Shown: one piece after another, positions 7,526 through 55,030 of the stretch
Position numbering within the stretch: the first letter of the stretch is position 1
Layout: every line of letters starts with the position of its first letter
From: Gigantopelta aegis
Taxonomy: Eukaryota > Mollusca > Gastropoda > Neomphalida > Peltospiridae
Direction of reading: 5' to 3'
Length of the DNA stretch: 64,000 nucleotides
Assembly: GCF_016097555.1 (NCBI RefSeq)
Contig: NC_054713.1
Location: 44,554,750-44,618,749, forward strand
The notes under the pieces: model-generated
Told to the model about the DNA's origin: nothing
Seen by the model: the letters and a program-made list of their open reading frames with translations, nothing else
Databases searched by the model: none
Program-made: the position numbers and the translations under genes

Positions 7526-9198
7526 TAACCCTAAATCTAACCCCATCACTAAATCTAACCCCATCTCTAAATCTCAATCCATCACTAAATCTCAACCCAT
7601 CACTAAATCTAACCTCATCACTAAATCTCAACCCATCACTAAATCTCAACCCATCACTAAATCTCAACCCATCACTAAATCTAACCCCATCACTAAATCT
7701 CAATCCATCACTAAATCTAACCCTTTCACTAAATCTACACTAAATCTAAGCCCATCACTAAATCTCAACCCATCACTAAATCTAACCCCATCACTAAATC
7801 TAAGCCCATCACTAAATCTCAACCCATCACTAAATCTCAACCCATCACTAAATCTAACCCCATCACTAAATCTCAACCCATCACTAAATCTAACCCCATC
7901 ACTAAATCTCAACCCATCACTAAATCTAGCCACATCACTAAATCTAACCCTTTCACTAAATCTAACCCCATCACTAAATCTAACCCCATCACTAAATCTA
8001 ACCCTTTCACTAAATCTAACCCCATCACTAAATCTAACCCCATCACTAAATCTCAACCCATCACTAAATCTAACCCCATCACTAAATCTCAACCCATCAC
8101 TAAATCTAACCCCATCACTAAATCTCAATCCATCACTAAATCTAACCCCATCACTAAATCTAACCCCATCACTAAATCTCAACCCATCACTAAATTTAAC
8201 CCCATCAATAAATCTCAACCCATCACTAAATCTAACCTCATCACTAAATCTAACCCCATCACTAAATCTCAACCCATCACTAAATCTAACCCCATCACTA
8301 AATCTAACCCCATCACTAAATCTCAACCCATCACTAAATCTAACCCCATCACTAAATCTCAACCCATCACTAAATTTAACCCCATCAATAAATCTCAACC
8401 CATCACTAAATCTAACCCCATCACTAAATCTAACCCCATCACTAAATCTCAACCCATCACTAAATCTAACCCCATCACTAAATCTCAACCCATCACTAAA
8501 TCTAACCTCATCACTAAATCTCAACCCATCACTAAATCTAACCCCATCACTAAATCTCAACCCATCACTAAATCTAGCCACATCACTAAATCTAACCCTT
8601 TCACTAAATCTAACCCCATCACTAAATCTAACCCCATCACTAAATCTAACCCTTTCACTAAATCTAACCCCATCACTAAATCTAACCCCATCACTAAATC
8701 TCAACCCATCACTAAATCTAACCCCATCACTAAATCTCAACCCATCACTAAATCTAACCCCATCACTAAATCTCAATCCATCACTAAATCTAACCCCATC
8801 ACTAAATCTAACCCCATCACTAAATCTCAACCCATCACTAAATTTAACCCCATCAATAAATCTCAACCCATCACTAAATCTAACCTCATCACTAAATCTA
8901 ACCCCATCACTAAATCTCAACCCATCACTAAATCTAACCCCATCACTAAATCTAACCCCATCACTAAATCTCAACCCATCACTAAATCTAACCCCATCAC
9001 TAAATCTCAACCCATCACTAAATTTAACCCCATCAATAAATCTCAACCCATCACTAAATCTAACCCCATCACTAAATCTAACCCCATCACTAAATCTCAA
9101 CCCATCACTAAATCTAACCCCATCACTAAATCTCAACCCATCACTAAATCTAACCTCATCACTAAATCTCAACCCATCACTAAATCTAACCCTTTTTA
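7526..9198. repeat. 18-bp minisatellite with 648-bp higher-order repeat
   Basis: About 92 units of an 18-bp motif (plus strand CACTAAATCTAACCCCAT and the variant CACTAAATCTCAACCCAT). Marker variants recur at fixed spacing: 'TAAATTTAAC' at 8191, 8371, 8839 and 9019 (180 and 648 bp apart), and 'TAGCCACATC' at 7928 and 8576. The array therefore evolves by block duplication of 36 units. It starts with telomere-type 'CCCTAACCCTAA' at about 7525. Because 18 is divisible by 3, long frames stay open (RFSDGV hexapeptide on minus), but two minus frames and one plus frame are open, so coding is not supported. Confidence 0.95.
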
Positions 9199-22880: not shown

Positions 22881-23436
22881 AATGGCTATTGGACAATTCC
22901 ATTGTGACGGACGTACACACGGATGAAAAATAGTTGTTTAATCGGAAAAGTTAACATGCATAAAAATTAGAGGTTAAGCGGAAAAGTTAATTCATGTTCT
23001 TGAAATCAAACATTTAGATTTAAGCCCCCGGTCACACTGTCAAGGATCAGAACGCTGGGTTAGCAACGGAAGTATTGATCCGGAATCATTCGTGACTAAC
23101 CAGAGTCTTTTTACCGATTGTAATTACATATCAAATATATTTTCCTGCATAAAATATTAGTGGCTGTATATTAAACGTGTTTCTGATCGTTCTAATATTT
23201 GTACTAGGTTAAATTTCATTTTATTTCCTAAAATAAGTTTTTTTCGTTCGTACGAAATTATTGGAAGACAAAATCCAGTTTGGGCTTCTTACAAATATTA
23301 AGACGACCAGAAACACATTGAATATACACACACTGATATTCTAAACAAGAAAATATATTTAATATGTAAGTTTAATCGTAGAAATATTTTATTAGTCGGA
23401 AGCATATTACAATGCAGCAAACTCTGGAATGTGCCT

Positions 23437-24030
23437 TTAATCATCGACTATTGGAAGTCAAACATTTGGTAAATTTAGAAATTCAAACACGTAGTCAACA
23501 GAGGAAACCCGCGACATTTTCCTTTTAGCAGCATGCGATCTTTTATATCCACTTTCCCACAGATAGGAAAGCACATACCAGGGCCTTTGACCAGTCGTTG
23601 TGCACTGGTTGGAACGAGACAAAACCCAGTCAGTTGAATAGATCCACCGAGGTGGTTCGATCCTCCGACGCACGCACCTCAAGCGTCTAGAACGAAATGA
23701 CGCAAAATGACTGCCCGGATTTGTTTTCACCATTTTGAAACATTTATTAAAATGTTTGGTTGGCAGAGCACGTTGATATATTTAGTATCGGCTATTGTAT
23801 GTGAAACAATTGCGACACGATGTCACCGTGTTTTGTTTACCAACGACTCTAGACCATAGTGAGTTAATAATTACCGCATTTTCGGTGTCAAACAGTAGGA
23901 AACCCGCTACATTTTTCTTTTAGTAGCAAAGGATCTTTTATATGCACTATTCCAACGACAGGGTAGCACATACCACGGCCTTTGTTATGCCAGTCGAGAT
24001 GCACTGGCTGGAACGAGAAATAGCCCAAAG
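23437..24030 (-). mobile_element. Two SINE remnants inside duplication copy 1
   Basis: 23437-23690 carries tail B, the core and a head with box-B-like GGTTCGATCC. 23883-24030 is a second core ('GAAACCCGCTACATTTTTCT', 'GACAGGGTAGCACATACCAC'). Both have exact counterparts in copy 2 (28528-28780 and 28980-29128). Confidence 0.85.
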
Positions 24031-24770
24031 GACGTATGCGTGTACATATTCATTTCATCCGTGTATATGATAGAAAGGATTAATGCGTTTTCATATTATT
24101 ATGTTGTTATTATTATTATTATTGTGAACCAAAACATAACATTACCAGTTTGTAGTCCTTTCGTCAGAGGCGAATCCAGGAAATATTTTAGGAGGTGCAC
24201 CAAGTTAAATATCACAGGACACATGGACCTCTCTTGTAAAAAGGACATCCCAAGAAAAATCATCGGGAAATGGTTAATTATGTATTCAATGTTCGTCCGC
24301 AGTTCCAAAACTACAATGTACGCAAACTACTTTTTGGTTTCTTCTCTTGTTTTTTAAAACTAAATCTTTGCAGATTTCTTTTTTCACTTTCAGTACGAAA
24401 AAAAATAAAGATAAAAACTAGTTAAATAATTCACTGTTATATATTATGTGATGTACTTGTGCTAGCTTATCTTCTTCTTTTTTTTATATAAAACAGTGAT
24501 ACCTTTTTATGTTACTTGTGTTTGGTTAAATAATCAATAGTAGGCCTATATAATATGTATTTGTGCTTATTCGAGATATTTCATATTTATTTATTTATTT
24601 ATTTATTTTCATTGTTAGGGTTGACCACCCTGCTACAAGAAGAGTAGCGCAGACATCAACACATACATATGAAATATAAATATCAATCATAATATCTATG
24701 CATACGAACCAAATGACTTGAATTAACTATTACAGAATACTTCCCGAATTCTAAGTGCTTCACAAATAAA

Positions 24771-25311
24771 TTTACTTAAATTTCACTTCTGTGCATGACA
24801 TTCTGTATTTAATAAAATTATCATTTTTAATCTATTGCGATGACACCTGTATTTTGGAGAAAAGATATTTTATTCTTAAATCCCTATATAATGGACATAA
24901 TGGTTACTGTTAATATATTTTGCAAATCATAACAAGCTAAACACTTACTGAGAAATTTACTTAAATTCCACTTCTGTGCATGACATTCTGTATTTAATAA
25001 AATTATCATTTTTAATCTATTGGGATGACACCTGTATTTTGGAGACATATATTTTATTCTTAAATCCCTATATAATGGACATAATGATTACTGTTAATAT
25101 ATTTTGCAAATCATAACAAGCTAAACACTTACTGAGAAATTTACTTAAATTCCACTTCTGTGCATGACATTCTGTATTTAATAAAATTATCATTTTTAAT
25201 CTATTGGGATGACACCTGTATTTTGGAGACATATATTTTATTCTTAAATCCCTATATAATGGACATAATGATTACTGTTAATATATTTTGCAAATCATAA
25301 CAAGCTAAACA
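24771..25311. repeat. Three-copy 184-bp tandem repeat
   Basis: 'TTTACTTAAATT' starts units at 24771, 24956 and 25140. Each carries 'CATGACATTCTGTATTTAAT' and 'CCCTATATAATGGACATAAT'. The matching place in copy 2 (about 29873-30050) has a single unit, so the array expanded after, or was lost since, the segmental duplication. Confidence 0.9.
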
Positions 25312-25857
25312 CTTGCTGAAAAATCGAGTAATGAAAACTGCATTGGTACATCAAATGTACTCTTCCAGTCATATCTGCTAAATATCATTAAAGAGGGACC
25401 AATTTCACAAAATGCCGTAACCCTCGTTTTGCACGTAAACGTAAATCTACAGCTTACTGAGATATCCATATATATTAGGTAATGAAAATTGCGTTGGTGC
25501 ATCGAAGTCTAATGCCGTACATCAAATGTACTATTCCGTTCTGTACTATCTTATCTATTAAAGATGGTCCGAAACTTTGGCTGATATCGGTGATGATGAT
25601 ATGGATATTTCAACTCCAGATCAATGCCGATCACAAAGACCACCAGCAAAGCCAAAGATAAAACCCATACTTCCTCCCGATGAAAAATAAAGTTATCCAG
25701 TGGAACTGTCGTTGGCTTAGGCCCAGTTTTGATGAATTAAAGTCTTCTAATTCCAAAGTATAGTCCTCTTGCAGTGTCTTCGGGAAACTTTCCTGGAGGA
25801 TACTGACAGTATTAACATCAGATGATTTAATCTCTACTATAAATGGCAAGAAACTGA

Positions 25858-28114: not shown

Positions 28115-28780
28115 AACTAGACTGGCGCACATTGGTTATTTAATGGGACATTCCTGAGTTTGCTGCAATTTTTAAGTTGTTATCGACTAACCAGAGTCTT
28201 TTTACCGATTGTAATTACATATCAAATATATTTTCCTGCATAAAATATTAGTGGCTGTATATTAAACGTGTTTCTGGTCGTTCTAATATTTGTACTAGGT
28301 TAAATTTCATTTTATTTCCTAAAATAAGTTTTTTTCGTACGTACGAAATTATTGGAAGACAAAATCCAGTTTGGGCTTCTTACAAATATTAAGACGACCA
28401 GAAACACATTGAATATACAGACACTGATATTCTAAACAAGAAAATATATTTAATACGTAAGTTTAATCGTAGAAATAGTTTATTAGTCGGAAGCATATTA
28501 CAATGCAGCAAACTCTGGAATGTCCCTTTAATCATCGACTATTGGAAGTCAAACATTTGGTAAATTTAGAAATTCAAACACGTAGTCAACAGAGGAACCC
28601 CGCGACATTTTCCTTTTAGCAGCATGGGATCTTTTATATCCACTTTCCCACAGATAGGAAAGCACATACCAGGGCCTTTGACCAGTCGTTGTGCACTGGT
28701 TGGAACGAGACAAAACCCAGTCAGTTGAATAGATCCACCGAGGTGGTTCGATCCTCCGACGCACGCACCTCAAGCGTCTA
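28115..28780 (-). mobile_element. SINE split by a TTAA-MITE
   Basis: Tail B begins at about 28115 ('GTTTAACTAGACTGGCGCAC', 'ATTGGTTAT') and resumes after the MITE as 'TCATCGACTATTGGAAGTCA', running through the core to a head near 28780. The duplicated TTAA (28140-28143 and 28528-28531) marks the nested insertion. Confidence 0.85.
28144..28527. mobile_element. TTAA-MITE (384 bp) inserted in a SINE
   Basis: The terminal sequences TGGGACATTCCTGAGTTTGC and GCAAACTCTGGAATGTCCCT are inverted repeats, bounded by TTAA on both sides. TTAA target duplication is typical of piggyBac-type elements. There is no open reading frame of note. The same family occurs at 34898-35281, 21033-21341 and, partially, at 23094-23436. 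Confidence 0.88.
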
Positions 28781-30590
28781 GAATGAAATGACGCAAAATG
28801 ACTGCTTGGATTTGTTTTCACCATTTTGAAACATTTATTAAAATGTTTTGTTGGCAGAGCACGTTGATATATTTAGTATCGGCTATTGTATGTGAAACAT
28901 GTGCTAATTGCGACACGATGTCACCGTGTTTTGTTTACCAACAACGCTAGACCATAGTGAGTTATTAATTACCGTATTTTCCGTGTCAAACAGTAGGAAA
29001 CCCGCTACATTTTTCTTTTAGTAGCAAAGGATCTTTTATATGCACCATCCCAACGACAGGGTAGCACATACCACGGCCTTTGATATGCCAGTCGAGATGC
29101 ACTGGCTGGAACGAGAAATAGCCCAAAGGACGTATGTGTGTACATATTCATTTCATCCGTGTATATGATAGAAAGGATTAATGCGTTTTCATATTATTAT
29201 GTTGTTATTATTATTATTATTATTATTATTGTGAACCAAAACATAACATTACCAGTTTGTAGTCCTTTCGTCAGAGGCGAATCCAGGAAATATTTTAGGA
29301 GGTGCACCAAGTTAAATATCACAGGACACATGGACCTCTCTTGTAAAAAGGACATCCCAAGAAAAATCATCGGGAAATGGTTAATTATGTATTCAATGTT
29401 CGTCCGCAGTTCCAAAACTACAATGTACGCAAACTACTTTTTGGTTTCTTCTCTTTTTTTTAAAACTAAATCTTTGCAGATTTCTTTTTTCACTTTCAGT
29501 ACGAGAAAAAATAAAGATAAAAACTAGTTAAATAATTCACTGTTATATATTATGTGATGTACTTGTGCTAGCTTATCTTCTTCTGTTTTTTATATAAAAC
29601 AGTGATACCTTTTTATGTAACTTGTGTTTAGTTAAATAATCAATAGTAGGCCTATATAATATGTATTTGTGCTTATTCGAGATATTTCATATTTATTTAT
29701 TTATTTATTTTCATTGTTAGGGTTGACCACCCTGTTACAAGAAGAGTAGCGCAGACATCAACACATACATATGAAATATAAATATCAATCATAATATCTA
29801 TGCATACGAACCAAATGATTTGAATTAACTATTACAGAATACTTCCCGAATTCTAAGTGCTTCACAAATAAATTTACTTAAATTCCACTTCTGTGCATGA
29901 CATTCTGTATTTAATAAAATTATCATTTTTAATCTACTGGGATGACACCTGTATTTTGGAGACAAGATATTTTATTTTTAAATCCCTATATAATGGACCT
30001 AATGATTACTGTTAATATATTTTGCAAATCATAACAAGCTAAACACTTGCTGAGAAATCGAGTAATGAAAACTGCATTGGTACATCAAATGTACTCTTCC
30101 AGTCATATCTGTTAAATATCATTAAAGAGGGACCAATTTCACAAAATGCCGTAACCCTCGTTTTGCACGTAAACGTAAATCTACAGCTTACTGAGATATC
30201 CATATATATTAGGTAATGAAAATTGCGTTGGTGCATCGAAGTCTAATGCCGTACATCAAATGTACTATTCCGTTCTGTCCTATCTTATCTATTAAAGATG
30301 GTCTGAAACTTTGGCTGATATCGGTGATGATGATATGGAGATTTCAACTCCAGATCAATGCCGATCACAAAGACCACCAGCAAAGCCAAAGATAAAACCC
30401 ATACTTCCTCCCGATGGAAAATAAATTTATCCAGTGGAACTGTTGTTGGCTTAGGCCCAATTTTGATGAATTAAGTCTTCTAATTCAAAAATATAGTCCT
30501 CTTGCAGTGTCTTCGGGAAACTTTCCTGGAGGATACTGACAGTATTAACATCAGATGATTTAATCTCTACTATAAATGGCAAGAAACTGA
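28185..30590. repeat. Segmental duplication, copy 2 (2.41 kb)
   Basis: Partner of 23094-25857. Here the left boundary lies within a complete MITE and the right boundary within a longer retrotransposon, so this copy preserves the original context. Small differences include a longer (ATT)n near 29210 and only one 184-bp unit. Confidence 0.9.
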
Positions 30591-31439: not shown

Positions 31440-32430
31440 CTCAAACATATGTGAAATCTGTCTGTAAAATCAAGGGGAAAGAATCCAATAATACAGTTCG
31501 CCATTTGTCTTTTAATGACAGGGATGTGACGTCTCATCGTGACATTGCCAATGCATTGGCAGACAATTTCTGTCATAACTGTTCTTCTTCTTTCAGTAGA
31601 TGCTTTTACATGTCAGAAATAAAGCTGAAAAGCAACCTATTAACATGCTGAAGTATACAACAGGTGCTTCTCTTTGGAGGAGTTGCAGGACGCTCTACGT
31701 AGAGCCCATGATACTTCAGTAGGACCAGATGAAATACACTATCAACTCTTAAAACACTTACATGAATCATCCTTAATGTTTCTATTTAATATCTTTAACA
31801 AAATCTGGATTTCGGGTGACGTTCCTTCTGATTGGAGAAAAGCCATTGTCATTCTTATTCCCAAGCATGGGAAGGATCCAACAAATCCTACCAGTTATCG
31901 CCCTATTGCTTTGACAAGTTGCATTTGTAAAACCATGGAAAGAATGATCAACCGTAGACTTGTCTGGTATCTTGAGTCCCACAAATTACTTACTAATGTG
32001 CAATGTGGGTTCAGGTCTAGACGTAGCACGGTCGATCATCTTGTTAGATTTGAAACGTTTTGTAGAGAAGCTTTCATCCATAACCAGCATTTGGTATCGG
32101 TCTTTTTGTACCACGTGGAAGTATGGGGTTTTGAAAGACCTCTATGGCATGGGTCTAAGAGTCCGTATGCCTGACTTTATCTCAAATTTCTTTTTAACAA
32201 TAGGTCTTTCAAGGTACAAGTGGGATCTACGTTATCTGATTCTTACTCTCAAGAGATGTAGGGTTAGGGTTAGGGAGCATCCTGCCTCGAGGTAGCATCC
32301 TGTCAGTAACTTTATTTTCTGTGAACATTAACAGCCTCACCCAGTGTTAAAACCTGGTGTTGAAAGCTCGTTATATGTCATTGATTTTCAGATTTGCTAC
32401 AGGATTATCCAGTACGAGTGTCAATGAACG
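31440..32430 (+). pseudogene. Retrotransposon reverse transcriptase, palm and fingers, broken
   Basis: 31674-32174 stays open and shows 'TSVGPDEIHYQLLKHL', 'DVPSDWRKAIVILIPKHGKD', 'TSYRPIALTSCICKTMERMI' and 'VQCGFRSRRSTVDHLVRFE', the conserved blocks 1-4 of non-LTR reverse transcriptases. The frame then shifts. Downstream 'RGSILSVTLFSVNINSL' is the GxPQGS block and 'SLYVIDF' stands where F(A/V)DD is expected, so the first catalytic Asp of that box is lost. A telomere-type tract interrupts the GVPQGS block (see 32259-32275). Confidence 0.88.
32259..32275 (+). repeat. Short interstitial TTAGGG tract
   Basis: TAGGGTTAGGGTTAGGG lies exactly where retrotransposon sequence should run from '...SYSQEM' into 'GVPQGSIL', followed by a partial repeat of 'AGCATCCTG'. 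It is an insertion in the element rather than part of it. Confidence 0.8.
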
Positions 32431-34797: not shown

Positions 34798-34897
34798 ACC
34801 CATGTATCATTGGTAGGAATTAGTTTCGGTAGTGTTCAGTGTCCTTCAATCAATCTTTCCACATTGACTTATCATCGTGTGGTGTCAAACATTTTAA

Positions 34898-35281
34898 AGG
34901 GACATTCCTGAGTTTGCTGCAATATTTAAGATGTTATCGACTAACATATACTTTTTAACGATTGTAATTGCATATGAAATATATTTTTTGGCATAAAATA
35001 TTAGTGGCTGTATATTAAAGGTACGTCTTATCGTTTTAATATTGCTACTAGGTTCAATTTCATTTTATTTCCTAAAATATAGTTTTTTTCGTACGTACGA
35101 AATTATTTGAAGACAAAATCCAGTTTGGGCTTCTTAGAAATATTAAGACGACCAGAAACACATTGAATATACAGACACTGATATCCTAAACAAGAAAATA
35201 TATTTAATATGTAAGTTTAATCGTAGAAATATTTTATTAGTCGGAAACATCTTACAATGGAGCAAACTCAGGAATGTCCCT
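34898..35281. mobile_element. TTAA-MITE, complete 384-bp copy
   Basis: Terminal inverted repeats AGGGACATTCCTGAGTTTGC and the complement GCAAACTCAGGAATGTCCCT. TTAA occurs at 34894-34897 and 35282-35285. A palindromic CGTACGTACG lies in the middle. It has no transposase. The target and end structure suggest mobilisation by a piggyBac-type transposase (inference). Confidence 0.9.
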
Positions 35282-35460
35282 TTAAGAAAACAAAAAGTGA
35301 AAACAAATGCATATACATTAAATAAGTTCATGTTTTGTAACAATGTTGTGTTGAGATCTTATTATTTGTTTTTAAATTATAATCAAAACACGTCATAATT
35401 CATACAATTCTTGCAAATAATTACTTCTTTTTTATCCTATTGCTCCATCTCATTTTGAAT

Positions 35461-36499: not shown

Positions 36500-38198
36500 G
36501 GTAAAAATATCTTCTTTTTTTATTTGAAGTTGTTTATTTTCATTTTTGGTCACATTTTCACACAGTATATATATTTTTTTATACATACATACACAGATCA
36601 AAATCAGTTAATATAAAATAAAACAACAAACCTCTTGCCAACATGTCATTGAACCTCACTCAGTACTAAACACTCAAAATGTCTTATACATGTACATGTA
36701 TATATGGTAATAAATACTTAGATACTGTCAGTGGTGGATGACGTAGAGATATTTATTCAAACAACTTATGGTATACACTCCACCTTTTAATAAATTCATT
36801 ATATTTGATTTTATTGGAATACATTTTTTTTCATATAAAAAATAAGAATGTATATGAATTTTTAATATTTTAATATCTAGTGATTTCTTCAGAAATTTTG
36901 AACTATATATAAATTGCTTTGTCAAAAGAGCAATAATGTCAATTATGATATTGTTCTTTGAGTAGCCAAGAAGAAAACTGGTACGAGAGAAGATAACTAT
37001 AATGTCTGCAGCTTTTATCCATTGCTCGACTTGTTTAATTAAATTTTGGACGTGTACACAATCAACAAATAAATGCATATACGTTTCACTATACGCATTA
37101 CAGAAGCTACAATTTGGGATGCTTATCACTCTAATATTATAGAGAAACTTGTTTGTAGGGAGAATTCGTTGGATTATTCTATATTGGAACCAACTTAATT
37201 TGTTATCCTTAGATATACTGAACACATTGCTGTTGATACTTTTCCATCAATTGTATTCTTGTTCAAAATTTAATTCTCTTTCCCATTTAGATATATTTTT
37301 TGGTGGAGAAAAAGTTGACTTTATATAGGTGTTATATATATATTTTGACCCGTTTGTTTTGTATTATGGTATTTATATACTTAGGACAAAATAGAAAGTC
37401 AGCTGAAAGTGGTTTGGTGAATAAAAATGGCCATGTATGTAATATTGCAGCCTTTAGCCCTTGAAATGTAGTAAATGGTGGATGAAAGCCATAAAATTCA
37501 CAAAATCCATCATATTTAAATAAGTTGCCATCTGGGTCATACATATCATGTACGTTTGTTATACCTATTATATTCCAATTCTGGTAATAAACACTTTTGT
37601 TACCAATTTTAATTAGGGAGTTGAACCACAGTGGTTTGGAACTTACATCATTTTCGTTAAGTTCCACTTTCTTTTTGAATAATGCTAGTATACTGAATAC
37701 CTGTTTCCAGAACATATTTGTAATTTTTTTCCCACACAGTTTATGGTAATCATCTCCTATATTAGTAAATAAAATCTAAGGATATGATACCATAATGAAT
37801 CATGTCCATTTGTTGCTCTTCTAATCCATGTTAATTTTAAGGAATTCATAAAATATTCTAAGTTTACCATTTTTAAAGCACCATTTTCTATATAATGCAT
37901 TAGCAAATTTGCGAAATTCTATCTATGGAACTCTTCCAAATATATGAATAAAAGATCTTGTTGATTGTTTTTATTATGCCATTATCTGGATTGGGGATAC
38001 TGAGAATAAGGTGAACAAGTTTAGATAGAGCCAAGGATTTGACGACAGTAATTCTACCCAGCATAGTAAGATAACCTTTAGACCAGGTATTCAGTAACTT
38101 TGAAATCTCTTCAATTTTGTCAGTATAATTTAATTGTACAATTTCATTTAACTGGACACTAAATTTAATTCCCAAGAAGGTAAAGGTAAAAATATCTT
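36500..38198 (-). mobile_element. L1-like retrotransposon, 5'-truncated, with 14-bp target duplication
   Basis: The direct repeat GGTAAAAATATCTT at 36500-36513 and 38185-38198 bounds a 1.67-kb insert. It encodes the C-terminal part of an L1-type ORF2 on the minus strand and ends, in transcript sense, in an A-rich tail next to 36514. Truncation at the transcript 5' side with a target duplication is the usual product of target-primed reverse transcription. Confidence 0.92.
36727..38180 (-). pseudogene. L1-type ORF2 C-terminal region, broken
   Basis: The N-terminal part (38175 downward) reads 'GIKFSVQLNEIVQLNYTDKI', 'LLNTWSKGYLTMLGRITVVK' and 'IFYSYIWKSS', the thumb region after the reverse transcriptase. 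The middle (37715-37332) has 'SKPLWFNSLIKIGNKSVYYQ' and 'NWNIIGITNVHDM'. The last part (37225-36728) has 'KLSWFQYRIIQRILPTNKFL' and the zinc-knuckle-like 'CSFCNAYSETYMHLFVDC' found in L1/Tx1-type proteins. Two frame breaks (near 37900-37720 and 37330-37226) make it non-functional. Confidence 0.88.
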
Positions 38199-40659: not shown

Positions 40660-41215
40660 GGGGCAGCACATAGCCCAGCGATAAAGTGTTCGCTTGATGT
40701 ACAGTCGGTCTGGGATCAATTCCCGTCGGTGGGCCAATTGGGCTATTTCTCATTCGAGTCATTTTATCACAACTGGTATATCAAAGGACATCATAGTATA
40801 AAGAAATAAAAGGATCACACAGATAGCAACAAGAAATAATAACTGCACCAAAAATCAATTCATATTGTCAGACGTTGACTGGGAACATACAGTCAGCACA
40901 TTCAACACTACAGACATTCAGTCCCACATTACAACTTGGTATGAAATACAAACATTACTACGCTAGTTGTGAATTAAATTTGGTCTACAATTCCATGTGT
41001 TCCCTTATTTCTTTACATCAGTATATTTGCCATCCTGTCTGTGGGGGTGTATATAAAAAAAAAAACACTTGCTATGACTACTACTACTAAATTCTTTATT
41101 TAGTGAGGGTAACTAATGAAACAATGTAGCGGTATAGCTGAAAATTACCAAATGTTTGACATCCAATAGCCGATGATTAATAAATCAGTGTGCTCAAGTG
41201 GTTTGAAAAAATGCT
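40660..41215 (+). mobile_element. SINE interrupted by a Tc1-derived MITE
   Basis: The head 'GGGGCAGCACATAGCCCAGC' (box A region) and 'GGTCTGGGATCAATTCCCGT' run into the core up to 'GGTATATCAAAGGAC'. The core resumes at 'GCCATCCTGTCTGTGGGGGT' after the MITE and ends in tail B (41140-41205). An A run and (ACT)n at 41055-41090 are secondary. Confidence 0.85.
40796..41024. mobile_element. Tc1-derived MITE (about 230 bp)
   Basis: Left AGTATAAAGAAATAAAAGGA and right TCCCTTATTTCTTTACATCA are imperfect inverted repeats that match the terminal repeats of the Tc1 element at 19161-20915 (TACTGATGGAAAGAAATAAG). TA borders are present. 'GTGAATTAAATTTG' near the right end also resembles the subterminal region of that element. 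Confidence 0.8.
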
Positions 41216-41261
41216 AATCTATTAAAACTAGAAATTATATTGATCAATTTTAATTTTCTGT

Positions 41262-43580
41262 GTTTTGTTAACGACAACACTGGAGCACATTGATTTATTA
41301 ATCATCAGCTACTGGATGTCAAACATCTGGTAACCACTGGAGCACACTGATTTATTAATCATCAGCTACTGGATGTCAAACATCTGGTAACCACTGGAGC
41401 ACACTGATTTATTAATCATCAGCTACTGGATGTCAAACATCTGGTAACCACTGGAGCACATTGATTTATTAATCATCAGCTACTGGATGTCAAACATCTG
41501 GTAACCACTGGAGCACACTGATTTATTAATCATCAGCTACTGGATGTCAAACATCTGGTAACCACTGGAGCACACTGATTTATTAATCATCAGCTACTGG
41601 ATGTCAAACATCTGGTAACCACTGGAGCACATTGATTTATTAATCATCAGCTACTGGATGTCAAACATCTGGTAACCACTGGAGCACACTGATTTATTAA
41701 TCATCAGCTACTGGATGTCAAACATCTGGTAACCACTGGAGCACACTGATTTATTAATCATCAGCTACTGGATGTCAAACATTTGGTAACCACTGGAGCA
41801 CATTGATTTATTAATCATCAGCTACTGGATGTCAAACATCTGGTAACCACTGGAGCACACTGATTTATTAATCATCAGCTATTGGATGTCAAACATCTGG
41901 TAACCACTGGAGCACATTGATTTATTAATCATCAGCTACTGGATGTCAAACATCTGGTAACCACTGGAGCACATTGATTTATTAATCATCAGCTACTGGA
42001 TGTCAAACATCTGGTAACCACTGGAGCACACTGATTTATTAATCATCAGCTACTGGATGTCAAACATCTGGTAACCACTGGAGCACATTGATTTATTAAT
42101 CATCAGCTACTGGATGTCAAACATCTGGTAACCACTGGAGCACATTGATTTATTAATCATCAGCTACTGGATGTCAAACATTTGGTAACCACTGGAGCAC
42201 ACTGATTTATTAATCATCAGCTACTGGATGTCAAACATCTGGTAACCACTGGAGCACATTGATTTATTAATCATCAGCTACTGGATGTCAAACATCTGGT
42301 AACCACTGGAGCACATTGATTTATTAATCATCAGCTACTGGATGTCAAACATCTGGTAACCACTGGAGCACACTGATTTATTAATCATCAGCTACTGGAT
42401 GTCAAACATTTGGTAACCACTGGAGCACACTGATTTATTAATCATCAGCTACTGGATGTCAAACATTTGGTAACCACTGGAGCACATTGATTTATTAATC
42501 ATCAGCTACTGGATGTCAAACATCTGGTAACCACTGGAGCACACTGATTTATTAATCATCAGCTATTGGATGTCAAACATCTGGTAACCACTGGAGCACA
42601 TTGATTTATTAATCATCAGCTACTGGATGTCAAACATCTGGTAACCACTGGAGCACACTGATTTATTAATCATCAGCTACTGGATGTCAAACATTTGGTA
42701 ACCACTGGAGCACACTGATTTATTAATCATCAGCTACTGGATGTCAAACATTTGGTAACCACTGGAGCACATTGATTTATTAATCATCAGCTACTGGATG
42801 TCAAACATCTGGTAACCACTGGAGCACACTGATTTATTAATCATCAGCTATTGGATGTCAAACATCTGGTAACCACTGGAGCACATTGATTTATTAATCA
42901 TCAGCTACTGGATGTCAAACATCTGGTAACCACTGGAGCACATTGATTTATTAATCATCAGCTACTGGATGTCAAACATCTGGTAACCACTGGAGCACAT
43001 TGATTTATTAATCATCAGCTACTGGATGTCAAACATCTGGTAACCACTGGAGCACACTGATTTATTAATCATCAGCTATTGGATGTCAAACATCTGGTAT
43101 CCACTGGAGCACATTGATTTATTAATCATCAGCTACTGGATGTCAAACATCTGGTAACCACTGGAGCACACTGATTTATTAATCATCAGCTACTGGATGT
43201 CAAACATTTGGTAACCACTGGAGCACACTGATTTATTAATCATCAGCTACTGGATGTCAAACATTTGGTAACCACTGGAGCACATTGATTTATTAATCAT
43301 CAGCTACTGGATGTCAAACATCTGGTAACCACTGGAGCACACTGATTTATTAATCATCAGCTACTGGATGTCAAACATTTGGTAGTTATGACATATAGTC
43401 TTACATTTTTCAATTAGTAGCAAGGGATTTTTTATATGCACCATCCCACAGACAGGATTGTACATACCACAGCCTTTGGTATACCAGTTGTGGTACACTG
43501 CCTGCAACGAGAAATAGCCCAAATGGGTCCACCGACGCGGATCGATCCCAGACCGACCGCGCATTAGGTCAGCATGAGAA
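41262..43580 (-). mobile_element. SINE whose tail B holds a 37-unit expansion
   Basis: Read in reverse, tail B starts at 'TTGTTAACGACAACACTGGA'. The tail then repeats 37 times. After the last unit ordinary SINE sequence continues: 'TAGTCTTACATTTTTCAATT', 'AGCAAGGGATTTTTTATATG', 'CCCACAGACAGGATTGTACA' and a head with 'GGATCGATCCCAGACC' to about 43565. The whole array is therefore one SINE copy enlarged from about 0.3 to 2.3 kb. Confidence 0.93.
41277..43385. repeat. 57-bp tandem array, 37 units, derived from SINE tail
   Basis: Unit: CCACTGGAGCACAYTGATTT, ATTAATCATCAGCTAYTGGA, TGTCAAACATYTGGTAA (57 bp). Variation is almost limited to three C/T sites. Units 20-24 and 25-29 share the same five-unit pattern, so a 285-bp higher-order repeat exists. 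No spacers or variable inserts are present. Confidence 0.97.
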
Positions 43581-45275: not shown

Positions 45276-45947
45276 TTATAAAATACAGCAGCCATTTTCC
45301 TCTATACTCGTCGACAGTGTTTTAAGTTTTTGTATCGCGGGCGGAATTGCTTCATGCGACTCGATCTCGGGCATCGACAGAATGTCCAGCAGAACCTTGA
45401 TCCCCTGATTCAGGTCCGACTTACGAATCTTCATCTTTCCTTTACGTCGAAAGCTGTTGCGCACGACCCACGCCTTCTGAATGAGCTCCTTCGGGATGTT
45501 GAATTCCTCGCAGTTCTCTAACAAACTCAGCGAGAAGCGGATGTCCTCGTGGAACTCGTTCGACTTGTAATAGAGTCGGTGCGCACGGGGGATGAAGACC
45601 CTCGCAAACTCGTATGGAATGAGCGGCCACTGCGCCGAGTGGTACCGCGACCAGTTGATCCGCTGCTTGTACTCATCCTTGCACAGCGAGTAGATCTCGC
45701 CCTTCCACCAGTTGCAGGTGGCGCACCACTGGGAGTCCTGCGTCTGGCTGCAGTTCCTGTGACACGCGGGAAGGTTGCCCTGTGCGCGACGAGACCGTTT
45801 GTGCAGCACGGAGATCTTGTGGTGGATGCAGATGGCCAGTGCCTCTGTCGATTCTCTCAGGGCGAGGTTCAGGGTGAACCAGTCGCGTGTTCGCGGGTCT
45901 GTCATTTCCTCATTCAGAAACTCTTGTCGAGACGTCTGCTGACCCAT
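45276..45947 (-). CDS. Uncharacterised Cys-cluster protein, possible dual lipidation
   Basis: 223 residues from ATG 45947 to TAA 45276-45278, distinctly GC-richer than its surroundings. The ATG start is chosen because an in-frame upstream extension has no ATG and crosses a splice acceptor (TTCAG|ACTGG, exon from 45955); the 8-nt ACTGGAAT would be 5' UTR. Residues 23-32 (WFTLNLALRE), Cys 62, 66, 75 and 78 (C-x3-C-x8-C-x2-C, then NWWK), Trp 99, Trp 107 and PYEFARVFIPR (111-121) recall a lophotrochozoan family of uncharacterised proteins with CxxC...WK...W...WEIAK...MP layout, sometimes compared with DZIP3-like N-termini. That link is from memory and unverified. MGQQTS fits the N-myristoylation pattern (Gly2, Ser6), and the C-terminal CCIL is a CaaX box with Leu, as in geranylgeranylated proteins. 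No transmembrane segment or signal peptide. Membrane attachment is inferred; function is unknown. Confidence 0.75.
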   Translation of the reverse strand: MGQQTSRQEFLNEEMTDPRTRDWFTLNLALRESTEALAICIHHKISVLHKRSRRAQGNLPACHRNCSQTQDSQWCATCNWWKGEIYSLCKDEYKQRINWSRYHSAQWPLIPYEFARVFIPRAHRLYYKSNEFHEDIRFSLSLLENCEEFNIPKELIQKAWVVRNSFRRKGKMKIRKSDLNQGIKVLLDILSMPEIESHEAIPPAIQKLKTLSTSIEENGCCIL

Positions 45948-46345
45948 ATTCCAGTCTGAAAGACGAAATGAGGATTTGTTTAACACATTGACACATTTCT
46001 TTCAGGCTTTTATGAATTGAAAAATTGTACAATTGCGAGAACGATTCCATTTGCACGTTGCTCTCGGAAATCCTAACCCTGCTGACCCATATTCCAGTCT
46101 GAAAGACGAAATGAGTATTTGTTTAACACATTTCTTTCAGGCTTTTATAAATTGAAAAACTGCACAATTGCGAGAAAATTACAAGAATGATCATTCCATT
46201 CACATGTTGCTATCAGAAATCCTAACCCTGCTGATCTATATTCCAGTCTGAAAAACAAAACAAGTATTTTTTTTTTTTCAACAACAGTATTTCACATTAT
46301 CTCCAGGTGTTCATCAGTTGAAAAATTACATAAACAAACCTCTGA
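45938..46345. repeat. Three tandem copies of the acceptor/start region
   Basis: Units begin at 45938, 46081 and 46230 (spacing 143 and 149 bp), each with 'CTGACCCATATTCCAGTCTG' or a variant. On the minus strand, unit 2 keeps the acceptor and ATG GGT CAG CAG but runs into a stop after five codons (MGQQG). Unit 3 has lost the ATG. Only unit 1 joins the long reading frame. Confidence 0.85.
45948..45970 (-). other. Splice acceptor and short 5' UTR of the Cys-cluster gene
   Basis: On the minus strand 'TCATTTCGTCTTTCAG' precedes ACTGGAAT and ATG. The pyrimidine tract plus CAG is a good 3' splice site. The upstream exon carrying the promoter was not located within the window. Confidence 0.65.
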
Positions 46346-51484: not shown

Positions 51485-54400
51485 GGTGTCTGGTACCGGT
51501 GGTGTTAGCTTGAGTGTCTAGTGCAAGCTATGACAGTACGGAATGCAGTGTGTGATGTACAAAGTGTGTAGAATTGTATTCCGTACCTGTGGTGTTAGCT
51601 CGAGTGTCCTCTAGCTATAACGGTGCAGTGCTGGAGGACACTCGATCTGACATCACAGGTACGGAATGCAGTGTGTGATGTACAAAGTGTGTATAATTGT
51701 ATTCCGTACCTGTGGTGTTAGCTCGGGTGTTCTCTAGCTATAACGGTGCAGTGCTGGAGGACACTTGATCTGACATCACAGGTACGGAATACAGTGTGTG
51801 ATGTACAAAATGTGTAGAATTGTATTCCGTACCTGTGGTGTTAGCTCGGGTGTCCTCTAGCTATAATAGTGCAGTGCTGGAGGACACTTGATCTGACATC
51901 ACATGTACGGAATGCAGTGTGTGATGTACAAAGTGTGTATAATTGTATTCCGTACCTGTGGTGTTAGCTCGAGTGTCCTCTAGCTATAACGGTGCAGTGC
52001 TGGAGGACACTCGATCTGACATCACAGGTACGGAATGCAGTGTGTGATGTACAAAGTGTGTATAATTGTATTCCGTACCTGTGGTGTTAGCTCGGGTGTT
52101 CTCTAGCTATAACGGTGCAGTGCTGGAGGACACTTGATCTGACATCACAGGTACGGAATACAGTGTGTGATGTACAAAATGTGTAGAATTGTATTCCGTA
52201 CCTGTGGTGTTAGCTCGGGTGTCCTCTAGCTATAATAGTGCAGTGCTGGAGGACACTTGATCTGACATCACAGGTACGGAATGCAGTGTGTGACGTACAA
52301 AGTGTGTATAATTGTATTCCGTACCTGTGGTGTTAGCTCGGGTGTCCTCTAGCTATAACGGTGCAGTACTGGAGGACACTCGATCTGACATCACAGGTAC
52401 GGAATGCAGTGTGTGATGTACAGAGTGTGTATAATTGTATTCCGTACCTGTGGTGTTAGCTCGGGTGTCCTCTAGCTATAACGGTGCAGTGCTGGAGGAC
52501 ACTCGATCTGACATCACAGGTACGGAATGCAGTGTGTGATGTACAAAGTGTGTATAATTGTATTCCGTACCTGTGGTGTTAGCTCGGGTGTTCTCTAGCT
52601 ATAACGGTGCAGTGCTGGAGGACACTCGATCTGACATCACAGGTACGGAATGCAGTGTGTGATGTACAAAGTGTGTATAATTGTATTCCGTACCTGTGGT
52701 GTTAGCTCGGGTGTCCTCTAGCTATAACGGTGCAGTGCTGGAGGACACTTGATCTGACATCACAGGTACGGAATGCAGTGTGTGACGTACAAAGTGTGTA
52801 TAATTGTATTCCGTACCTGTGGTGTTAGCTCGGGTGTCCTCTAGCTATAACGGTGCAGTGCTGGAGGACACTCGATCTGACATCACAGGTACGGAATGCA
52901 GTGTGTGACGTACAAAGTGTGTATAATTGTATTCCGTACCTGTGGTGTTAGCTCGGGTGTCCTCTAGCTATAACGGTGCAGTGCTGGAGGACACTCGATC
53001 TGACATCACAGGTACGGAATGCAGTGTGTGACGTACAAAGTGTGTATAATTGTATTCCGTACCTGTGGTGTTAGCTCGGGTGTCCTCTAGCTATAACGGT
53101 GCAGTGCTGGAGGACACTCGATCTGACATCACAGGTACGGAATGCAGTGTGTGACGTACAAAGTGTGTATAATTGTATTCCGTACCTGTGGTGTTAGCTC
53201 GGGTGTCCTCTAGCTATAACGGTGCAGTGCTGGAGGACACTCGATCTGACATCACAGGTACGGAATGCAGTGTGTGACGTACAAAGTGTGTATAATTGTA
53301 TTCCGTACCTGTGGTGTTAGCTCGAGTGTCCTCTAGCTATAACTTTGCAGTGCTGGAGGACACTCGATCTGACATCACAGGTACGGAATGCAGTGTGTGA
53401 CGTACAAAGTGTGTATAATTGTATTCCGTACCTGTGGTGTTAGCTCGAGTGTCCTCTAGCTATAACGGTGCAGTGCTGGAGGACACTCGATCTGACATCA
53501 CAGGTACGGAATGCAGTGTGTGACGTACAAAGTGTGTATAATTGTATTCCGTACCTGTGGTGTTAGCTCGAGTGTCCTCTAGCTATAACGGTGCAGTGCT
53601 GGAGGACACTCGATCTGACATCACAGGTACGGAATGCAGTGTGTGACGTACAAAGTGTGTATAATTGTATTCCGTACCTGTGGTGTTAGCTCGAGTGTCC
53701 TCTAGCTATAACTTTGCAGTGCTGGAGGACACTCGATCTGACATCACAGGTACGGAATGCAGTGTGTGACGTACAAAGTGTGTATAATTGTATTCCGTAC
53801 CTGTGGTGTTAGCTCGAGTGTCCTCTAGCTATAACGGTGCAGTGCTGGAGGACACTTGATCTGACATCACAGGTACGGAATGCAGTGTGTGATGTACAAA
53901 GTGTGTATAATTGTATTCCGTACCTGTGGTGTTAGCTCGAGTGTCCTCTAGCTATAATAGTGCAGTGCTGGAGGACACTCGATCTGACATCACAGGTACG
54001 GAATGCAGTGTGTGACGTACAAAGTGTGTATAATTGTATTCCGTACCTGTGGTGTTAGCTCGGGTGTCCTCTAGCTATAACGGTGCAGTGCTGGAGGACA
54101 CTCGATCTGACATCACAGGTACGGAATGCAGTGTGTGACGTACAAAGTGTGTATAATTGTATTCCGTACCTGTGGTGTTAGCTCGAGTGTCCTCTAGCTA
54201 TAACGGTGCAGTGCTGGAGGACACTCGATCTGACATCACAGGTACGGAATGCAGTGTGTGACGTACAAAGTGTGTATAATTGTATTCCGTACCTGTGGTG
54301 TTAGCTCGGGTGTCCTCTAGCTATAACGGTGCAGTGCTGGAGGACACTTGATCTGACATCACAGGTACAGAATGCAGTGTGTGACGTACAAAGTGTGTAT

Positions 54401-55030
54401 AATTGTATTCCGTACCTGTGGTGTTAGCTCGGGTGTCCTCTAGCTATAATAGTGCAGTGCTGGAGGACACTCGATCTGACATCACAGGTACGGAATGCAG
54501 TGTGTGATGTACAAAGTGTGTATAATTGTATTCCGTACCTGTGGTGTTAGCTCGGGTGTCCTCTAGCTATAATAGTGCAGTGCTGGAGGACACTTGATCT
54601 GACATCACAGGTACGGAATGCAGTGTGTGATGTACAAAATGTGTAGAATTGTATTCCGTACCTGTGGTGTTAGCTCGAGTGTCCTCTAGCTATAACGGTG
54701 CAGTGCTGGAGGACACTCGATCTGACATCACATGTACGGAATGCAGTGTGTGACGTACAAAGTGTGTATAATTGTATTCCGTACCTGTGGTGTTAGCTCG
54801 AGTGTCCTCTAGCTATAACGGTGCAGTACTGGAGGACACTTGATCTGACATCACAGGTACGGAATGCAGTGTGTGATGTACAAAGTGTGTATAATTGTAT
54901 TCCGTACCTGTGGTGTTAGCTCGAGTGTCCTCTAGCTATAACGGTGCAGTGCTGGAGGACACTTGATCTGACATCACAGGTACGGAATGCAGTGTGTGAT
55001 GTACAAAGTGTCTGTCATTGGATTCCGAAC
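51485..55030. repeat. 123-bp hairpin satellite, about 29 units
   Basis: The unit starts CCGTACCTGTGGTGTTAGCT (51581, 51704, 51827, ...), so the period is 123 bp. Each unit holds an inverted repeat: the left arm from CCGTACC to GTGTCCTC and the right arm from GAGGACAC to GGTACGG match at 28 of 31 positions around a 22-nt loop. Edge units are diverged (51485-51580 and the last). Two consecutive 369-bp three-unit blocks (about 51595-51963 and 51964-52332) repeat the same variant order. No coding frame and no variable spacers. Confidence 0.96.

What the first reader, a model, noticed from the sequence alone, without database searches (positions are those of the whole stretch)
41262..43580. A SINE tail turned into a 37-unit satellite inside a single SINE copy
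The 57-bp unit is exactly part of the tail B segment of the local SINE family. Normal SINE sequence flanks the array on both sides, so the origin of this satellite is directly visible. Units differ almost only at three C/T positions, implying fast homogenisation. It is a clean example of satellite birth from a retroposon.
Basis: seen in the sequence. Interest (0 to 1): 0.75.

Follow-up and report, generated by a model that had tools for sequence, protein, structure and literature searches.

The report
Tandem array born inside one SINE
A short piece from the end of one mobile-element copy has been copied 37 times head to tail where it lies, and the same genome holds dozens of similar but separate events, so it is a clear example of an already known way in which tandem repeats arise.

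Summary
Window 41278-43386 is 37 head-to-tail units of exactly 57 bp inside one minus-strand SINE copy: 17 bases of SINE 3' end remain on the left, about 160 bases of body on the right. Units differ almost only at three sites; at each, one allele is the SINE-family base.

The own 1.149-Gb genome could be searched. All 35 exact hits to the unit junction lie in this array. The origin is in situ.

The event is not singular. I found 42 further loci where part of the same SINE is duplicated or tandem, 2 to about 76 units, mostly with different breakpoints. At least two arrays are longer. The SINE body does it too; the tail is favoured about 3-fold per copy (p = 0.02).

SINE-derived arrays are in print for squamates, a limpet and human Alu, so this is a new member of a known kind. 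At 2.1 kb and one locus it is minisatellite-scale. "Fast homogenisation" is better read as recent expansion with exchange, perhaps partly in three-unit blocks.

The parts
41278..43386 (-). Tandem array, 37 units of 57 bp, derived from SINE positions 180-237 (SINE sense on the minus strand)
41261..41277 (-). Remaining 3' end of the host SINE (SINE about 237-253), left of the array
43387..43562 (-). Body and part of the head of the host SINE, right of the array; 16 bp missing between body and tail
   Evidence: 43550-43562 read directly from the sequence
40712..41202 (+). Separate, interrupted SINE copy in opposite orientation, tail to tail with the host; its single tail (41143-41202) is 97% like the consensus and holds one unit only

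Best explanation
A tRNA-type SINE inserted on the minus strand. Later a 57-bp stretch of its 3' tail (SINE 180-237) was duplicated in place, at a junction with 1 bp of overlap. The duplication then grew to 37 units by unequal exchange or slippage between units, perhaps partly in blocks of three. Shown: the array, its SINE flanks on both sides, the absence of the exact junction elsewhere in the assembly, recombinant unit types (or recurrent mutation), and dimers, trimers and longer arrays in other copies of the same SINE. Inferred: the order of steps, and slippage or unequal sister-chromatid exchange as the machinery. It probably has no function; none was tested.
For: SINE sequence on both sides. 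All 35 exact matches to the unit junction lie in this array. Each variable site keeps the SINE-family base as one allele, checked in 47 isolated tails from fetched loci: A in 32 of 45 at SINE 186, 44 of 47 at 201, 38 of 47 at 223. All four combinations of sites 13 and 50 occur (17, 11, 8, 1), so units recombine or sites mutate recurrently. Three-unit periodicity of the T13 allele: 0.765 against 0.485 expected at lag 3, p = 0.001 before correction for 9 lags; all types, best of lags 1-12, p = 0.02. CCC units cluster left and T50 units right, p = 0.0012. Intermediate stages with 2, 3, 4, 5 and more units exist at other SINE copies. Of 48 differences fixed within one of 23 tail arrays, 39 are fixed in no other of these arrays; 18 of the 23 arrays have at least one. 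Units sharing such locus-specific bases is what duplication after insertion predicts.
Against: No empty or unexpanded allele, related species or second individual was available, so the order insertion then duplication is inferred. Five of the 23 arrays (L017, L020, L027, L037, L039) have no array-specific fixed base. Target-site duplications of the host SINE were not found convincingly. The longest repeated block of unit types is not longer than chance (6, p = 0.16), so block growth rests on the periodicity alone. The same junction (237/180) occurs at least at three other loci (100 of 129 places listed), which could hint at inheritance of a dimer rather than repeated birth, although their bodies share no more derived bases than random pairs (0-2 against a mean of 1.27).
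Confidence: 0.88

Rival explanations
1. The SINE was inserted with a doubled tail, because the reverse transcriptase jumped back on the RNA during target-primed synthesis or because a SINE lineage with a dimeric tail spreads. Only the later expansion was local.
For: The same 237/180 junction is seen at four loci: the window, L013, L027 and L029. Tail dimers are about 3 times as frequent per copy as body dimers.
Against: Body segments are tandemised too: 17 loci, 12 supported by TRF at the hit. Both units of L013 and both of L029 share substitutions, 1 and 2 of which are fixed in no other array examined. The four host bodies share only 0-2 derived bases, background mean 1.27. The one other junction tested as a control is also reused, at 2 loci (the second locus was seen in the listing only).
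Confidence: 0.12
2. A pre-existing 57-bp satellite invaded or was converted into the SINE.
For: A second, 21-unit 57-bp array with the same register exists at C6:54.47 Mb (L027).
Against: That array has its own SINE body next to it and lacks the window's fixed bases, and no exact match to the window's junction lies outside the window.
Confidence: 0.03
3. Assembly artefact: a short array expanded or collapsed by the assembler.
For: Near-identical units are hard to assemble; no reads could be examined.
Against: 2.1 kb is within the length of ordinary long reads (general knowledge; the read type used is unknown). The unit types form a non-random order. Many similar arrays of different sequence exist in the same assembly.
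Confidence: 0.04
4. Expansion by rolling-circle amplification of an excised circle followed by reintegration, rather than by unequal exchange.
For: Three-unit periodicity would fit a three-unit circle.
Against: The periodicity shifts phase after unit 22 and is imperfect. Nothing specific to circles was found or tested.
Confidence: 0.1

Closest known systems
SINE-derived satellites (sSats) of squamate reptiles, PMC10702118 (abstract, discussion, first of three parts of results, and localisation section read)
   Same: Part of a SINE, 67 to about 290 nt, in tandem; a terminal unit runs on into the SINE; alternating subvariants; subtelomeric tendency; mostly independent origins
   Different: Snake sSat3 forms up to thousands of related loci; the window array is a single locus. 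There most arrays have one extended terminal unit, both ends being a minor variant; here both ends run on. The unit is shorter (57 bp) and from the SINE 3' tail.
PcH-sat of the limpet Patella caerulea, from a Nin-SINE, PMC11121367 (abstract, results and discussion read)
   Same: A gastropod satellite whose unit contains a 3' segment of a SINE
   Different: 179-bp unit, pericentromeric, about 10% of the genome.
Alu-derived tandem repeats in human, PMC3389668 (abstract, results and discussion read)
   Same: Local, in situ duplication of part of a SINE copy, mostly single-locus; mean 2.3-2.4 units, few long; one case of 17 units of 52 bp from AluJo; some Alu subfamilies with favoured regions, others without
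   Different: Different SINE and genome; arrays here reach about 76 units.

Membership tests
SINE-derived tandem repeat / sSat | Unit derived from part of a SINE | tested here: met
   Units match SINE 180-237
SINE-derived tandem repeat / sSat | At least four middle units, with a terminal unit that runs on into the SINE | tested here: met
   37 units; SINE continues on both sides
SINE-derived tandem repeat / sSat | Homogenised family at several loci (as snake sSat3) | tested here: not met
   35 of 35 exact junction hits in this one array
Classical satellite DNA | Long arrays at several loci in heterochromatin | tested here: not met
   2.1 kb, one locus; chromatin state not testable
Single-locus TE-derived tandem repeat (Ahmed and Liang) | Array at one locus inside a TE copy, units most alike within the array | tested here: met
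tRNA-derived SINE (the host) | Short, dispersed, very high copy number | tested here: met
   36,821 exact matches to a 20-base two-part body pattern; 9,139 to a tail pattern
tRNA-derived SINE (the host) | tRNA-like head with A and B boxes | tested here: inconclusive
   Heads contain A- and B-box-like motifs (motifs recalled; heads printed); ARAGORN 0 tRNAs in 10 loci; Rfam 0 matches in L027 650-1150
tRNA-derived SINE (the host) | Target-site duplications | tested here: inconclusive
   No convincing pair around the host copy
Nin-SINE / PcH-sat | Nin domain sequence | not testable with these tools
   No reference sequence in the text read

The most novel reading that the evidence does not exclude
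One SINE family in this genome is a nursery of tandem arrays: stages from dimer to about 76 units are visible, births are independent at each copy (about 1 per 1,000 tails and 1 per 3,000 bodies at this sensitivity), the 3' tail is favoured, certain breakpoints recur, and arrays that reach five or more units lie preferentially near contig ends. The rate of satellite birth and the step that lets few arrays grow could then be measured within one genome.
Probability: 0.45. Interest if true: 0.5.

Novelty: new member of a known kind. Interest (0 to 1): 0.36.

Why it matters
The individual array is an ordinary, well-preserved case. Taken together, the many separate arrays in one SINE family give a natural series (2, 3, 5, 11, 37, about 76 units) with a known ancestral sequence and a countable number of copies at risk. 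That makes birth rates, breakpoint rules and growth conditions of tandem repeats measurable, which single established satellites do not allow.

Tried and rejected
Hairpin-end model: I asked whether array breakpoints sit at ends that can pair with each other. The window's do (TGGT/ACCA), but over 22 distinct breakpoint pairs the mean end stem is 1.86 against 1.96 for random placements, p = 0.68. Rejected. Folding the 57-bp unit as DNA gives only weak signals (z -1.4 and -2.0 for the two strands); the 80-base SINE tail as RNA has z -2.8. Not pursued.

Tail-only model (an accident of reverse transcription): rejected as the sole cause by the body control. An earlier count (11 and 12 supported loci) was too generous for the tail; one search requires the tandem repeat at the hit itself and gives 9 of 13 and 12 of 17.

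Dimeric SINE lineage behind the 57-bp junction: not supported, but a star-like family tree gives that test little power.

Subtelomeric bias: long arrays (5 units or more) lie within 5 Mb of a contig end in 8 of 19 cases, short ones in 3 of 24, expectation 15% (binomial p = 0.004, Fisher p = 0.038), but a rank test gives p = 0.14. The 5-Mb and 5-unit limits were chosen after looking, unit numbers were typed from the TRF and BLAST tables, and the sample is uneven (the list reached only C1 and part of C2). I treat it as a hint. Seven fetched dimer loci without a clear tandem repeat (L043, L044, L056, L062, L063, L066, L068) were left out of that count. L051 and L052 were left in on account of arrays beside the hit; the one in L052 shows no SINE body.

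Twelve loci fetched for single matches (L021-L026, L030-L035) showed no SINE-tail array, except a 25-bp, two-copy one in L033 that I did not count.

Searching viral contigs for the SINE tail, exact pattern, found nothing. Partner LINE and species were not identified; 'mollusc' or 'gastropod' is recalled from the look of the SINE and comes from no call.

Full report
What is there. Window 41278-43386 holds 37 units of exactly 57 bp. The host is a minus-strand SINE copy. Its 3' end reaches 41261 on the left, and its body and part of its head run from 43387 to about 43562 on the right. A separate, interrupted SINE copy in the opposite orientation lies just to the left, at 40712-41202. In SINE coordinates (my 258-base consensus) the unit is 180-237, and the unit-to-unit junction has 1 bp of overlap.

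Variation inside the array. Five columns vary. Three are C/T on the plus strand, A/G in the SINE sense, at SINE 223, 201 and 186. In 47 isolated tails from fetched loci the commonest base is A at all three (38 of 47, 44 of 47, 32 of 45), so one allele at each site is the likely ancestral one. Two further differences are present in all 37 units: 206 C>T, also in 14 of 47 isolated tails, and 231 T>C, in 7 of the 46 counted there. Unit types along the array read BAABAABADBCBBABEABBDDBCBDDBCBBBCBDDBD. The T13 allele repeats every third unit more often than chance (0.765 against 0.485, p = 0.001 before correction for 9 lags; best of 12 lags for all types p = 0.02). The longest repeated block is not significant (p = 0.16). 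Types CCC sit left and T50 right (p = 0.0012). All four combinations of sites 13 and 50 occur. This fits growth by exchange between units, perhaps partly three at a time, without full mixing. Mean pairwise difference between units is 2.0%, while the host body with its adjacent unit is 85% identical to the consensus, so the array as it stands is much younger than the SINE insertion, or has been homogenised since.

Is it unique? The window lies at C15:44554750-44618749 of a 1.149-Gb assembly of 5,216 contigs. A 34-base pattern across the unit junction with up to 3 mismatches gives 129 places, of which the best 100 were listed. All 35 exact ones are in this array, and the reversed-pattern control gives 0. 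The same 57-bp junction occurs with different bases at C6:54.47 Mb (21 units, L027), C3:3.3 kb (2 units, L013) and C10:55.9 Mb (2 units, L029); more may lie among the places not listed. One other junction, tested as a control, is shared by 2 loci, so reuse of a junction is not special to this one.

The wider pattern. A DNA search, the junction pattern and a dimer pattern led to 23 arrays (window included) that I mapped on the SINE. In 23 of 23, SINE sequence upstream of the unit is present on the 5' side. In 19 of 23 the other side runs to SINE 250 or beyond; in L027, L028, L029 and L037 it stops at 235-240. Unit lengths range from 43 to 127 bp and copies from 2 to about 76 (L036, C1:4.82 Mb, about 4.7 kb). 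Of 48 differences fixed within an array, 39 are fixed in one array only; 5 of the 23 arrays have none of these. The dimer pattern GATTTATTAATCATC-N(22-52)-same has 371 places, control 0; only the first 100, on C1 and part of C2, were listed, so loci were not counted from it. With the loci of the next paragraph the list grows to 43 (window included). Breakpoints could be mapped in 34 of these 43; four share 237/180, the other 30 differ from it and from each other.

Rates and control. A body-anchored tail-dimer pattern gives 14 places in 13 loci, against 9,139 places with the anchor and one core. The same form of pattern in the SINE body gives 23 places in 17 loci against 36,821. All 30 loci were fetched and scanned; TRF confirms a tandem repeat at the hit in 9 of 13 tail and 12 of 17 body loci, an odds ratio of 3.0, p = 0.02. 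So the body is tandemised too, the tail somewhat more often; the head was not tested. One body array, C4:9.70 Mb, has about 65 units of 64 bp over about 4.75 kb, with SINE sequence found on one side only. Near one hit (L052) a 44-bp, 9-unit array from the SINE 3' end showed no body beside it, an exception to the in situ picture.

What is known. SINE-derived satellites are described in squamates, with terminal units running on into the SINE, alternating subvariants and subtelomeric preference (PMC10702118; abstract, discussion, first of three parts of results and localisation section read). A limpet satellite contains part of a Nin-SINE (PMC11121367; abstract, results, discussion). In human, 23% of minisatellites and satellites are TE-derived, many from Alu, mostly single-locus, with some favoured regions (PMC3389668; abstract, results and discussion). 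A 2025 review lists mispairing in replication, unequal exchange and NHEJ among the routes (PMC12628747; passages only). I made six literature searches and did not see this array or this SINE in their listings; that is no proof of absence.

Verdict. The term satellite and the claim of fast homogenisation are too strong. It is a new member of a known kind. The set of separate arrays in one SINE family is more useful than the single case.

Noticed in passing
window 51536-55027: 123-bp satellite, 28 units. Relatives (67-90% identity, arrays or single matches) lie mostly on the same contig C15 (about 13.04, 23.2, 23.95, 25.8, 31.7, 43.3, 44.8, 44.9 Mb), with six places elsewhere (C1 twice, C3, C6, C11, C543); the unit also matches its own reverse strand at about 70%, so it is dyad-symmetric. 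Looks chromosome-biased.
   Followed up: partly
window 23094-25857 and 28185-30590: Direct segmental duplication of about 2.5 kb, 97% identical, 5.1 kb apart, carrying SINE copies; a third partial copy at 34893-35285.
   Followed up: no
window 7531-9192: 18-bp array, about 93 units, 87% matches, that leaves long open frames on both strands; probably not a gene.
   Followed up: no
window 45279-46001 (-): ORF of 241 aa with a DUF4559 match, E 1.3e-17.
   Followed up: no
window 31644-32171 (+), 36731-37246 (-): Fragments of reverse-transcriptase elements: RVT_1 (E 6e-9) and zf-RVT (E 1.5e-7); not tested as partners of the SINE.
   Followed up: no
L036 (C1:4819000-4826000): SINE-tail array of about 76 units mixing 65-, 56- and 47-bp unit lengths, with another 38-bp tandem repeat just upstream.
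   Followed up: partly
L028 (C11:34470000-34473300): 79-bp unit made of a SINE tail with an internal partial duplication, 15 units at 99% matches: looks like a two-step birth.
   Followed up: partly
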